A DNA stretch of 64,000 nucleotides from Candidatus Babeliaceae bacterium (GTDB taxonomy: Bacteria > Babelota > Babeliae > Babelales > Babelaceae), in the NCBI GenBank assembly GCA_007116155.1, contig SKJC01000002.1, positions 124,001 through 188,000 on the forward strand. The letters are read 5' to 3'. Below are positions 12,624 through 16,292 of this stretch, in pieces; within the stretch, counting starts at the first letter, position 1, and each line of letters begins with the position of its first letter. A program made the position numbers and the translations under genes. The notes under the pieces are model-generated. The model saw only the letters and a program-made list of their open reading frames with translations, was not told the DNA's origin and did not search any database.

Positions 12624-12704
12624 AATTTGTATATTGAATTTTATAAAGCTCGCAAAAGACGTAAGTTCTTTAGAGCTCTAACTATTTACGAATTAGGGGA
12701 AACT

Positions 12705-14123
12705 ATGAAATCAACAACGCAAAAACAGAGTCGCGCTTCTCAAATTACGGGATTACAACGCTCATACCAAGAAATAACAGCATATCTTGATGCACATTGG
12801 CATACCCCACTCAAAGAATCCATGCCGACAATTGTTACGTTTCTTGAATCTGACCTTGCCATTCAACCAAAGCAGCAAAAAACAATTATTATTAGTGGAT
12901 CTAATGGAAAAAGTATAACCGCTCATTTTACAACTCGTCTGCTTCAGTCAGAAGGATTATCAGTAGGTACTCTCCTTACTCCACATACAAAGGCATATAC
13001 TGAACGCATATCGTATAATGATGAGCAAATTTCGCTACAAGAATTTACTGATCTTGGCAATACTGTTCTCAACGCTGCCAACACCCGTAATATAGCACTG
13101 CCAAGTTCTTTGGTGCTTGATGCAATTGCACTTCTTTTCTTCACAAAAAAGCAGTCAGATGTTTTAGTTATTGAAGCAAATACGAATTTAGTTGCTCAGT
13201 ATGGAGAATTATATAAGACCAATGTTCTTGTCGTAACACGTATAACTAGTGAAAACACTGAACAATCCGAAGAAAAACAACTTGCAATAATTGCAAAAAT
13301 TCGTTCTCTAATTCAATCGGGAACACATGTTATCTCTGGTGACCAACTAAAACAGCATCTCCAAGCATTAGAAACTATAACTAATGAGCAAAACGGCATA
13401 TGGGAAATGCCTATTCGCAAACTTGCTCCATTAGGATATCCATTTGAACAGATTCATGGTCGCTGCGCTGCATTAGCAGAACGAGCTTCAAGTATTTATA
13501 TGAATTCCTGGGGTACAGAAGAGGCTACTATTGTTAATGAAAGCCTTCTAGTCAAACAAAAAGGTAAACGTGGTCGCCCTACGCTTGAAGCAAAACAACA
13601 AGCAAAATTACATCCAAAAAAAACCATCGATCAATTCTGGAAAGATACATTAAACGAACTTCCATCACGTTTTGAATTGAGAGAAGAAGAATCACCTGCT
13701 GTTATTTTAGATAACGCTGATAATCTTGATGCTCTTGAGAATCTCTTACTTGGTGCTCGCTTACTACATTATAAGCGTCCAGTAAAATCATTAACACTTA
13801 TTATGAGTGCTGAAGCTCAAAATTTTGAAACAGAATCGTTTGTCCGCGCAGTTCGCTACTTCTTCAAGAAAACACCTGGTCAAATCTTTATTTGTCCACT
13901 GGACCAAAATAATACGCCATGGACTTCCCCGCAAGGTTGGGATACGAGCGCATTAGCAGCAGAATTTACCAATAAAAAAGTTAAAGCATCAGCATTTACT
14001 TCATTTGCAAAGGCCTTTGAAGCCGCAAAAGATGTAAGTAACCCCGAAGACGGACTTATTGTTGTTACTGGATCAGCAAGCATTATTACAAGCTACTTAA
14101 AATATCGCGGGTCAGCAAAGTAA
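12705..14123 (+). CDS. FolC-like Mur-ligase family protein
   Basis: This is a 472-residue ATP-dependent ligase of the FolC (folylpolyglutamate/dihydrofolate synthase) and Mur superfamily. The P-loop is GSNGKSI (about 65-71; family GTNGKGS), followed by the switch region around LTPHTKAYTERI. The C-terminal domain opens with PSRFELREEESPAVILDNADN, matching FolC PxRFE...VILDGAHN. The start is the ATG at 12705, preceded by AGGGGAA. Two oddities stand out: the usual EVGLGGRxDATN segment is reduced to IEANTN, and residues 286-293 form KGKRGRPT, an AT-hook-like motif in the linker before the C-terminal domain. The exact substrate is therefore uncertain. It is monocistronic, with a strong terminator. 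Confidence 0.7.
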   Translation: MKSTTQKQSRASQITGLQRSYQEITAYLDAHWHTPLKESMPTIVTFLESDLAIQPKQQKTIIISGSNGKSITAHFTTRLLQSEGLSVGTLLTPHTKAYTERISYNDEQISLQEFTDLGNTVLNAANTRNIALPSSLVLDAIALLFFTKKQSDVLVIEANTNLVAQYGELYKTNVLVVTRITSENTEQSEEKQLAIIAKIRSLIQSGTHVISGDQLKQHLQALETITNEQNGIWEMPIRKLAPLGYPFEQIHGRCAALAERASSIYMNSWGTEEATIVNESLLVKQKGKRGRPTLEAKQQAKLHPKKTIDQFWKDTLNELPSRFELREEESPAVILDNADNLDALENLLLGARLLHYKRPVKSLTLIMSAEAQNFETESFVRAVRYFFKKTPGQIFICPLDQNNTPWTSPQGWDTSALAAEFTNKKVKASAFTSFAKAFEAAKDVSNPEDGLIVVTGSASIITSYLKYRGSAK

Positions 14124-14217: not shown

Positions 14218-14511
14218 ATGCTTCTTTCATTTAACTCGACACTATCTCTTGCCTTCATCAGCCTCCTAATTCTTCTCTGTACCTTCTATGAATATCAATT
14301 ATTATTACATCCCAACAAAAAAAAATCGTATTCCTCACGCTACCTACAATTCCTGCACATAGGACGAACGTTACTCTTACTTCTCTGGTTACTCCTTATT
14401 TTTAAGTTGAAGTTACCCCTCTTTGGGAATATACTCGTTGCCATAGTATTCAGTAGCATATATACAGGTATGCTATTCTTTTTTTGGATAACCAGTAATA
14501 AAGGAACTTAG
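14218..14511 (+). CDS. small membrane protein at the AtpI position
   Basis: This 97-residue protein has three strongly hydrophobic segments with a basic loop (HPNKKKSYSSRYLQF) between the first two. No family motif is visible. Its position directly upstream of atpB, with its TAG sharing a base with the atpB GTG, is where AtpI, the assembly factor or Mg channel of F-type ATP synthase, is usually found. AtpI-like is therefore a context-based suggestion. A ribosome site AAAGG precedes the ATG. Confidence 0.55.
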   Translation: MLLSFNSTLSLAFISLLILLCTFYEYQLLLHPNKKKSYSSRYLQFLHIGRTLLLLLWLLLIFKLKLPLFGNILVAIVFSSIYTGMLFFFWITSNKGT

Positions 14512-15341
14512 TGGAAGAACAAGCTTTATTCCATACCGACATATGGAATCCTCTGGCTTATTTGGGCATTGAAAATCATTTTTTCGACTTAAACTTAGAA
14601 ACACTTACCCATACTTGGTTCGCACTGCTTATTATTCTACTTGCCTCCATTTTTGCGCGCATTGCGATCAGAAAACCTGAAAGTATCCCCGGACACTTAG
14701 TATTAAAAGGGATTCGTAGTCTTTATTCACTTATTCAACAGTCACTCGGACGAGTCCGCTCCTATCACTTCTATTTTATTAGCTCAATCTTTCTCTTTAT
14801 TTTTATATGCAACGCGCTACCACTTTTGCCGTTTCTAGAAGAACCAACAAAAGATCCAAATACCACATTTGCTTTAGCAATCATTGCCATTCTCTTTGCT
14901 CAAATTGAAGGCTTAAAATCGCACGGCTTCATGGCTTTTATACAAGAATATTTAAAAATGCCGCTCACGCTTTATAATAGAAAAAAGCCGATTACTCCTC
15001 AGATCCCTTTTATCATAGCAAAAAGCTTAATCAATATTGTTGCAGGAGGCTTAAGCTTTCCGCTTGAACTCATGAGTAAAAGCGCTAATTTAATCTCTCT
15101 CGCACTACGACTTTTTGGCAACATTTTCGGCGGAGCAGTTATTGTTGGCTTACTAAAAAAAGCTACCAGTGGCTCTATACTTATCAATATAATTTTAATC
15201 GGGACAGGTCTAAACCTAATCGTCACATTCTTTTTTGGATTATTCGAAGCGTTTATCCAGGCATTTGTTTTTACAATCCTTGCGACAACCTACCTCTCAC
15301 TTGCAACACAAACGCATGAAACCTCAAATCAACAAACCTAG
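14511..15341 (+). CDS. atpB: F-type ATP synthase subunit a
   Basis: Subunit a forms the ion half-channels next to the c-ring in the inner membrane. The 276-residue protein has the diagnostic helix SLALRLFGNIFGG with the essential arginine at residue 200, and a final helix FGLFEAFIQAFVFTILATTYL that matches the family end. The N-terminal FHTDIWNPL fits the usual start of subunit a. The start is a GTG with AAAGGA upstream. Genes for b, delta, alpha, gamma, beta and epsilon are not in the window, so the F1 part must be encoded elsewhere. Confidence 0.92.
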   Translation: MEEQALFHTDIWNPLAYLGIENHFFDLNLETLTHTWFALLIILLASIFARIAIRKPESIPGHLVLKGIRSLYSLIQQSLGRVRSYHFYFISSIFLFIFICNALPLLPFLEEPTKDPNTTFALAIIAILFAQIEGLKSHGFMAFIQEYLKMPLTLYNRKKPITPQIPFIIAKSLINIVAGGLSFPLELMSKSANLISLALRLFGNIFGGAVIVGLLKKATSGSILINIILIGTGLNLIVTFFFGLFEAFIQAFVFTILATTYLSLATQTHETSNQQT

Positions 15342-15350
15342 GACCTCTGT

Positions 15351-16292
15351 ATGAATATGCACTACGCACCCGTTCTTCAAATGCTTGCAACCAGCATTAC
15401 CCTTCTTGCCCCATTAACCGCAGTTAGCATCTCACAAAGTCTTTCTTCAAGGACGGCCCTAGAGGCCATGAATCAACAACCTGGTGCATTGAGTGTATTA
15501 CGCAAAACTATGATTTTAACATTAGCTATAAATGAAACTAGCGCTATTTTTGCCTTACTTACTACATTACTTATCTTTATGGGGTCTTGTACAAGCGTGG
15601 CTGAAGGGCTCGGCTATTTAGGCATGGCTTTTGCTATGGCAATCCCAGCTATTGTCGTTGGCTACCTATCAAATTTTCCTATCCGAAATGCAATTGTATC
15701 ACTTGCCAGACAGCCGAACCTTGCAACAAAACTAACCACCTTGCTGCTAATCGTATTAACAGTTCCCCAGACACCGGTAATTTTTGGTTTTGTTATGGCA
15801 ATCGTAATAAAACAATATATTATCACTGGGATTCCTCTGGCATTTGGAATAAAGCTTCTTGCAAGTGGCTTTGCCCTCGGATTTGGCGCCGTAGGACCTA
15901 GCATCGGAATCTTTCTTCTCGCCTCACAAGCTTGTTATTCTATCGGCATTGTAAAAAATTTATATGAACGAATTATCTCGTTTATATTCATTAGCCAAGC
16001 AGTTATAGAAACACCATTTTTATTTGCGCTGGTTCTTGCATTTTTAATTATGTTTTCTTCCATAGATTCATGGATACTCGCAGCCCCAATTGCAGCAGTT
16101 ATTATCTCCCTTGCGACACTCACTACAGGAATCGGCTCTGGAAAAATAGCACAAAAAGCATGTGAACAAATTGCATATAATACAGAGATGACACCCACGC
16201 TATCACGCACAAGTTTACTAGGACAAACCTTTGTGGATACGAACGTTATCTATGCAACACTGATTGCATTGGGCATCTTATTTCTTAGCTAA
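15351..16292 (+). CDS. atpE: F-type ATP synthase subunit c, four fused hairpins
   Basis: A normal c subunit is about 80 residues with two helices. This chain is 313 residues with about eight helices, readable as four c hairpins in tandem. The ion-binding positions fall at E62, Q140, E220 and D296, spaced 78, 80 and 76 residues. In repeats 1 and 2 the polar-loop proline (QQP at 42-44, RQP at 120-122) is exactly 18 residues before the ion site, as in E. coli (P43, D61). Repeat 3 keeps the helix-1 glycine pattern GFALGFGAVGPSIG. Repeat 1 also has Q29 and T63 at the positions of sodium ligands Q32 and S66 of the Propionigenium modestum c subunit. Repeat 2 has lost its carboxylate. A good ribosome site AGGA precedes the ATG. 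The last 15 bases overlap cmk, which is convergent. Confidence 0.85.
   Translation: MNMHYAPVLQMLATSITLLAPLTAVSISQSLSSRTALEAMNQQPGALSVLRKTMILTLAINETSAIFALLTTLLIFMGSCTSVAEGLGYLGMAFAMAIPAIVVGYLSNFPIRNAIVSLARQPNLATKLTTLLLIVLTVPQTPVIFGFVMAIVIKQYIITGIPLAFGIKLLASGFALGFGAVGPSIGIFLLASQACYSIGIVKNLYERIISFIFISQAVIETPFLFALVLAFLIMFSSIDSWILAAPIAAVIISLATLTTGIGSGKIAQKACEQIAYNTEMTPTLSRTSLLGQTFVDTNVIYATLIALGILFLS

What the first reader, a model, noticed from the sequence alone, without database searches (positions are those of the whole stretch)
15351..16292. Possible sodium site in repeat 1 only
Relative to the loop proline, repeat 1 has Q29 at -15, E62 at +18 and T63 at +19. These are the positions of Q32, E65 and S66, sodium ligands in the Propionigenium modestum c subunit. 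The aromatic Y70 position is F67. Repeats 3 and 4 have I and S at the Gln position, so the sites within one chain may differ in ion preference. This mixed arrangement is odd in a rotor.
Basis: partly seen in the sequence, partly recalled or inferred. Interest (0 to 1): 0.6.

Follow-up and report, generated by a model that had tools for sequence, protein, structure and literature searches.

The report
Four-hairpin rotor subunit, likely hybrid ring
A phylum of tiny bacteria that live inside protists carries, beside the ordinary rotor subunit of its ATP synthase, a second one made of four fused copies; the supposed sodium site in its first copy is better read as the end face that joins the neighbouring subunit than as a self-contained sodium site.

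Summary
The residues are as reported: Q29, E62, T63 and F67 stand at -15, +18, +19 and +23 from P44; only repeat 1 has Gln at -15. In solved sodium rotors Gln and Glu come from one hairpin and Ser/Thr, carbonyl and Tyr from its neighbour, in E. hirae NtpK the preceding hairpin. So T63 and F67 face repeat 2, whose carboxylate is lost (Q140), and cannot complete E62's site. Q29 is loose (Q/E in 35 of 49 homologues); S/T at T63 persists in 33 of 35 genomes where repeat 2 has no carboxylate. The larger finding: this four-hairpin subunit (c4) is in 96 of 101 Dependentiae genomes, next to the only subunit a (48 of 49), while an ordinary single-hairpin c sits with the F1 genes. Best reading: a heteromeric rotor like Acetobacterium woodii's, whose two-hairpin c1 is the closest solved structure. 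Cloacimonadota have a three-hairpin version directly before a single-hairpin c in 38 of 41 genomes. c4's two ends keep the ordinary ligands; its inside does not. Sodium use is unproven.

The parts
15351..16292 (+). c4: four-hairpin F-type ATP synthase subunit c, 313 aa
   Evidence: PF00137 four stretches, 88.4 bits; AlphaFold2 model mean pLDDT 96.7, pTM 0.93; best Foldseek match 4bem_J, A. woodii c1, E 2.0e-5
15363..15581 (+). hairpin R1 (about residues 5-77): acceptor Q29/E62, donor T63/S64/F67
   Evidence: columns; helices
15435..15437 (+). Q29 codon (-15)
   Evidence: Q 33, E 2, other 14 of 49
15534..15536 (+). E62 codon, R1 carboxylate
   Evidence: E 47, D 2 of 49
15537..15539 (+). T63 codon: faces the R2 interface, not E62's own site (inferred from published geometry)
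   Evidence: S/T 47 of 49; geometry from PMC2359735
15597..15818 (+). hairpin R2 (about residues 83-156), carboxylate lost
15768..15770 (+). Q140 codon where the R2 carboxylate should be
   Evidence: Q 32, E 13, M 3, G 1 of 49
15837..16055 (+). hairpin R3 (about residues 163-235), I187/E220
   Evidence: E in 45 of 49
16080..16286 (+). hairpin R4 (about residues 244-312), S263/D296, donor T297/N298/Y301
   Evidence: D/E 48 of 49, Y301 in 45 of 49
14511..15341 (+). subunit a (atpB), the only one found in the genome; R200 and Q250 conserved
   Evidence: PF00119 118.8 bits; one match in own genome; R200 48 of 48, Q250 48 of 48, E246 46 of 48
14218..14511 (+). 97-aa hydrophobic ORF upstream of atpB, possibly an AtpI-like assembly protein (inference by position)
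   Evidence: no Pfam or NCBIfam match; similar ORF found only in the same genus, L007

Best explanation
The ORF is c4, a four-hairpin subunit c of the single F1Fo-ATPase of a Candidatus Dependentiae (Babeliales) bacterium. It most likely sits as one covalent arc in a heteromeric rotor ring together with copies of the ordinary single-hairpin c (c1, 84 aa) encoded elsewhere with b, b', delta and alpha. The two ends of c4 look like c1: R1 keeps the acceptor pair (Gln, Glu), R4 keeps the donor pair (Thr, Tyr), so c4 can slot between c1 subunits. Its inner interfaces have degenerated: R2 lost its carboxylate, R3 and R4 lack the Gln, R1 to R3 lack the Tyr. The 'sodium motif' of repeat 1 is therefore c1-like chain-end conservation, not a self-contained sodium site. 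In this genome c4 carries three ion-binding carboxylates in four hairpins, so each turn moves fewer ions per ATP, which suits ATP-driven pumping in a cell that seems to import ATP. The main coupling ion here is more likely H+ (c1-c1 sites are Q/E/Ala/Tyr), although the site where c1 follows R4 would have a sodium-type core. Shown: sequences, conservation, gene order, single subunit a. Inferred: shared ring, orientation in the ring, ion, pumping direction.
For: c4 full length in 96 of 101 phylum genomes, the five without it being 53-78% complete; two matching loci in 92 of 101. One subunit a in 49 of 50 genomes, none in the 50th, 70% complete, adjacent to c4 in 48 of 49 (the other c4 lies at a contig end). 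In the own genome one subunit a, one gamma, alpha and beta by PF00006. c1 lies with b/delta/alpha genes in nearly every c1 locus fetched. Best fold and profile match is A. woodii c1 of the hybrid ring (E 2.0e-5, E 6.2e-24). The solved A. woodii c1 reads Q/E/T/S/F then Q/Q/T/T/Y in the alignment, the same E-to-Q loss in the second hairpin. Interface counts over 49 c4 and 44 c1: sodium-type core (Q/E, D/E, S/T) at c1 after c1 40 of 44, c1 after R4 39 of 44, R1 after c1 29 of 44, R1 after R4 35 of 49, but R2 after R1 0, R3 after R2 4, R4 after R3 0 of 49. Cloacimonadota: a full three-hairpin c in 41 of 78 genomes, a single-hairpin c directly downstream in 38 of these 41. Two neighbouring TLC (ATP/ADP translocase family) loci and no COX1 in the own genome; PMC6561590 proposes that a Dependentiae ATP synthase runs in reverse (passage).
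Against: No protein, expression or structure shows c1 and c4 in one ring. In Dependentiae the two c genes are in different operons, unlike A. woodii and Cloacimonadota. In clade I (14 of 49) R2 keeps Glu in 13 and R3 keeps Gln in 14, so the 'degenerate inside' pattern is strongest in clade II. R1's Gln/Glu is absent in 14 of 49, which weakens the chain-end argument. Only a summary of the model, no coordinates, was available, so interface geometry was not measured. The direction donor = preceding hairpin rests on published NtpK ligands.
Confidence: 0.7

Rival explanations
1. Homomeric c4 ring (for example three copies, twelve hairpins), with c1 used in another ring or at another stage. Then every R1 site (Q29, E62 plus T297, N298, Y301 of the preceding c4) would have a sodium-type ligand set, and the ring would mix one sodium-type and two other sites per c4.
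For: c4, not c1, is next to subunit a; R1 after R4 has the core in 35 of 49 and the fuller set (polar +20 and Tyr) in 13 of 49, own genome included.
Against: c1 is also near universal (two matches in 92 of 101) and sits with b/delta/alpha; only one subunit a; precedent and Cloacimonadota operons favour mixing.
Confidence: 0.13
2. One reading: repeat 1 by itself holds a sodium-selective site and the other repeats are proton sites.
For: Exact match of offsets; Q/E, D/E, S/T within R1 in 33 of 49.
Against: Ligands come from two adjacent hairpins; T63 is conserved where its interface has no carboxylate; Q/E at Q29 absent in 14 of 49.
Confidence: 0.06
3. c4 is an assembly or structural protein, or an evolving remnant, and the working rotor is c1 alone.
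For: R2 without carboxylate in 36 of 49 and altered inner ligands.
Against: Three or four carboxylates kept in 46 of 49, strict neighbourhood with subunit a, retention in 96 of 101 genomes.
Confidence: 0.06

Closest known systems
Acetobacterium woodii / Clostridium aceticum F/V-hybrid Na+ rotor (c1 with two hairpins plus single-hairpin c2/c3; PDB 4bem)
   Same: F-type enzyme with a multi-hairpin c beside a single-hairpin c; Glu replaced by Gln in the second hairpin; Phe for Tyr on the hairpin that faces the dead site; best sequence and fold match
   Different: Two hairpins, not four; both c genes in one operon; experimentally Na+-dependent; here c4 is with subunit a and c1 is in another operon, and ion and ring content are untested
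V-type proteolipids (E. hirae NtpK, eukaryotic c)
   Same: Fused hairpins with fewer carboxylates than hairpins; similar fold
   Different: Belong to V/A-ATPases; here subunit a, alpha, beta and gamma are F-type
Methanogen multi-hairpin c subunits (13 hairpins in M. kandleri, PMC2359735)
   Same: Many hairpins in one chain
   Different: Archaeal enzyme; each hairpin keeps the complete sodium ligand set according to that paper
Na+-type c subunits of P. modestum, I. tartaricus, F. nucleatum
   Same: Q/E, Glu, Ser/Thr at the same offsets when read along R1
   Different: One hairpin, identical neighbours, Tyr at +23; here neighbours differ and +23 is Phe

Membership tests
F-type subunit c (PF00137) | two-helix hairpin matching the family | tested here: met
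   four stretches, 88.4 bits against cut-off 24
F-type subunit c (PF00137) | ion-binding carboxylate in helix 2 of each hairpin | tested here: not met
   R1 E62, R3 E220, R4 D296, but R2 Q140
Na+-type c-ring site | Q/E and Glu of one hairpin with S/T, polar residue and Tyr of the preceding hairpin | tested here: inconclusive
   own R1 with R4 as donor meets it (counting N298 as the polar residue); own R1 with c1 as donor does not (Ala65); R3 and R4 do not
Na+-type c-ring site | Na+-dependent activity or transport | not testable with these tools
   needs biochemistry
Hybrid F/V-type rotor (A. woodii type) | multi-hairpin c with a lost carboxylate | tested here: met
   R2 Q140; Q or M in 35 of 35 clade II genomes
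Hybrid F/V-type rotor (A. woodii type) | single-hairpin c in the same genome with one F1Fo | tested here: met
Hybrid F/V-type rotor (A. woodii type) | both c genes in one atp operon | tested here: not met
   separate loci in Dependentiae; met in Cloacimonadota relatives
Hybrid F/V-type rotor (A. woodii type) | both proteins in one purified ring | not testable with these tools
   needs protein work
V/A-type ATPase | catalytic A/B subunits | tested here: not met
   PF00006 hits in own genome are alpha (L036), beta (L041) and one 433-aa frame on C5 not examined further, presumably Rho
N-ATPase (alternate F1Fo) | NCBIfam alt_F1F0 c score over cut-off | tested here: not met
   45.6 bits against 130.85

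The most novel reading that the evidence does not exclude
Hybrid F-type rotors built from a fused multi-hairpin c and an ordinary c are a recurring design: two hairpins in acetogens, three in Cloacimonadota, four in Dependentiae. In each, an internal or second hairpin drops its carboxylate while the ends of the chain keep the ligands needed to join c1 subunits. In Dependentiae this gives one ring with several chemically different sites, possibly binding different ions, with fewer ions per turn, set for an ATP-driven pump in intracellular parasites.
Probability: 0.5. Interest if true: 0.75.

Novelty: new variant of a known kind. Interest (0 to 1): 0.55.

Why it matters
The ion of an ATP synthase is often predicted from the motif of a single hairpin; in rings of unlike hairpins that gives wrong answers, and this case shows why. 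If the hybrid reading is right, a whole phylum of intracellular bacteria and many Cloacimonadota have asymmetric rotors with an altered ion-to-ATP ratio, which bears on how rotary ATPases tolerate dead sites and how parasites energise their membrane.

Tried and rejected
Considered and set aside: N-ATPase and V/A-ATPase membership; c4 as a contaminant or genome-specific fusion (rejected). Subunit a as an ion indicator: R200, E246 and Q250 are conserved, but I know of no subunit-a residue that settles Na+ against H+, so this gave no answer. Two c4-like hits outside Dependentiae were looked at: L165 (Deltaproteobacteria MAG) is an ordinary single-hairpin c; L164 (Cloacimonadota) is a real three-hairpin c. 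VIA-align ranks designed helical repeats above 4bem_J, which I take as general helical-repeat similarity. Whether Cloacimonadota c3 and Dependentiae c4 share one fused ancestor is open: the profile alignment pairs H1-R1, H2-R3, H3-R4 and skips R2, so the lost carboxylate lies in different hairpins. Whether R2 lost or regained its Glu is not settled: the tree is unrooted. Print: searches of the open library listed no paper that by title or abstract start deals with a four-hairpin Dependentiae c or a three-hairpin Cloacimonadota c; Brandt and Mueller 2015 on the distribution of hybrid rotors (seen only in reference lists) was not looked up and may mention some of these; Matthies 2014 was not held.

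Full report
What is there. The ORF at 15351-16292 (+) encodes 313 aa with four PF00137 stretches, each over the cut-off. The genome (755 kb, 18 contigs) belongs to Candidatus Dependentiae/Babeliales, judged by the named relatives. Directly upstream is subunit a (14511-15341; PF00119), the only one found in the genome. A second, ordinary c of 84 aa lies about 87 kb away in a c-b-b'-delta-alpha cluster (L036); beta and epsilon lie on contig C4 (L041) and gamma at C1:284132. The names b, b', delta and epsilon rest on position and size as I read them, not on a family search.

Check of the observation. Relative to P44, Q29, E62, T63, S64 and F67 stand at -15, +18, +19, +20 and +23, and R3 and R4 have I187 and S263 at the Gln position, as reported. 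Unreported: R2 has Q140 instead of a carboxylate.

Why one repeat is not one site. PMC2359735 (passages and figure legends) gives the I. tartaricus ligands as Glu65 and Gln32 of subunit A with Ser66, Val63 carbonyl and Tyr70 of subunit B, and the E. hirae NtpK ligands as Glu139 and Gln110 with Thr64, Leu61 and Tyr68 (that these lie in hairpin 2 and hairpin 1 follows from their numbering in a 156-aa two-hairpin chain). PMC3692424 (passages) says for F. nucleatum that Ser66 and Val63 come from the adjacent subunit. So hairpin n supplies Gln and Glu, hairpin n-1 supplies Ser/Thr, carbonyl and Tyr. Applied here: E62's site needs its Thr and Tyr from whatever precedes c4 in the ring; T63 and F67 look at R2, which has no carboxylate to bind an ion.

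Conservation. In 49 homologues (all the full-length c4 of the 50 genomes; G012 had none) R1 is D/E in 49, S/T at +19 in 47, Q/E at -15 in 35. The c4 tree splits 100/100 into clade I (14 rows) and clade II (35 rows, own genome included). In clade II R2 is Q or M in 35 of 35; in clade I it is E in 13 of 14. T63 is S/T in 33 of 35 clade II rows although its interface is dead. On the tree the R2 carboxylate changes at least twice, R3 Q/E three times, R1 Q/E eleven times. Three rows in that tree have long branches and their placing is unsure.

Interfaces. Scoring ligands across interfaces (49 c4, 44 c1): core set (Q/E, D/E, S/T) at c1 after c1 in 40 of 44, c1 after R4 39 of 44, R1 after c1 29 of 44, R1 after R4 35 of 49, R3 after R2 4 of 49, R2 after R1 and R4 after R3 0 of 49. 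The fuller set with a polar +20 (S, T, Q, R or N; N is my addition to the published Ser, Thr, Gln, Arg) and Tyr: 23, 12, 14 and 13 for the first four, 0 for the inner three. Y at +23 of R4 in 45 of 49, in none of R1 to R3. The chain ends of c4 thus resemble c1 and the inside does not. In the own genus (2 of 2) c1 is Q/E/Ala/Ser/Tyr, which lacks the Ser/Thr; among the 44 c1, 23 have the complete set when paired with themselves. By the rule in PMC2359735 that enzymes lacking a ligand are predicted to move protons, the own genus is predicted H+ at c1-c1 sites and 23 others Na+; this is prediction only.

One enzyme, two kinds of c. Subunit a occurs once in 49 of 50 genomes, and c4 lies next to it in 48 of 49. 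c4 is full length in 96 of 101 phylum genomes, the five misses being G012, G052, G059, G061 and G071, 53-78% complete; 92 of 101 have two matching loci (that list is cut, so not every second match was seen). The simplest reading is one Fo with both c kinds.

Precedent and relatives. The model of c4 (pLDDT 96.7, pTM 0.93) matches best 4bem_J, the two-hairpin c1 of A. woodii (Foldseek E 2.0e-5; profile E 6.2e-24). PMC7911925 (passages) describes this kind of c1 in A. woodii and C. aceticum: Q....ET in hairpin 1, Q....QT in hairpin 2, beside a single-hairpin c2, with a reduced Na+/ATP ratio. PMC7793690 (passages) gives 10 Na+ sites for the A. woodii ring. Outside Dependentiae, one search found a Cloacimonadota contig (L164) with a three-hairpin c; one search gave its genome a handle and one search found a full three-hairpin c in 41 of 78 genomes around it, with a single-hairpin c directly downstream (33-237 bases between matches) in 38 of 41. 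In the 12 loci read, subunit a lies upstream in 12 and c1 downstream in 11, the other contig ending there. In most of these 12 rows hairpin 1 reads E/E/T, hairpin 2 S or A/Q/T, hairpin 3 I/E/S-T-Y; a few rows differ, for example L198, L200 and L201 have Gln instead of Glu in hairpin 1 and L202 in hairpin 3. Carboxylate loss in a fused chain beside an intact c1 recurs.

Function. The own genome has two neighbouring open frames matching the TLC ATP/ADP translocase family and no COX1 match. [quoted passage not shown] A ring with fewer ion sites could build a larger gradient per ATP, so c4 fits a pump; this is inference. The coupling ion is not settled.

Limits. Coordinates of the model were not available, so distances were not measured; ring stoichiometry is unknown; no expression data; Brandt and Mueller 2015 was seen only as a reference.

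Noticed in passing
L164:2968-3714; L192-L202: Cloacimonadota carry a three-hairpin F-type c, with a carboxylate missing in hairpin 2, directly followed by a single-hairpin c with a full sodium-type ligand set.
   Followed up: partly
c4 rows: c4 falls into two deep clades that differ together at R2 (Glu or Gln/Met), R3 (Gln or mostly hydrophobic) and R4 (Glu or mostly Asp).
   Followed up: partly
c1 loci L036, L061-L103: The single-hairpin c of 23 of 44 genomes has a complete sodium-type ligand set, while the own genus has Ala at the Ser66 position.
   Followed up: partly
L036, L041, G000:C1:284132: The atp genes are scattered over at least four places: a-c4, c-b-b'-delta-alpha, beta-epsilon, gamma.
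   Followed up: no
12627-14123: A FolC/Mur-ligase-like gene lies upstream of atpB here and in many relatives across the order.
   Followed up: no
14218-14511: 97-aa hydrophobic ORF between folC and atpB with no family match, seen only in this genus; possible divergent AtpI.
   Followed up: no
14511-15341 (E246): Subunit a has a Glu four residues before the conserved Gln of its last helix in 46 of 48, and mostly Ser/Ala at residue 209, the place of E. coli E219 by recall.
   Followed up: no
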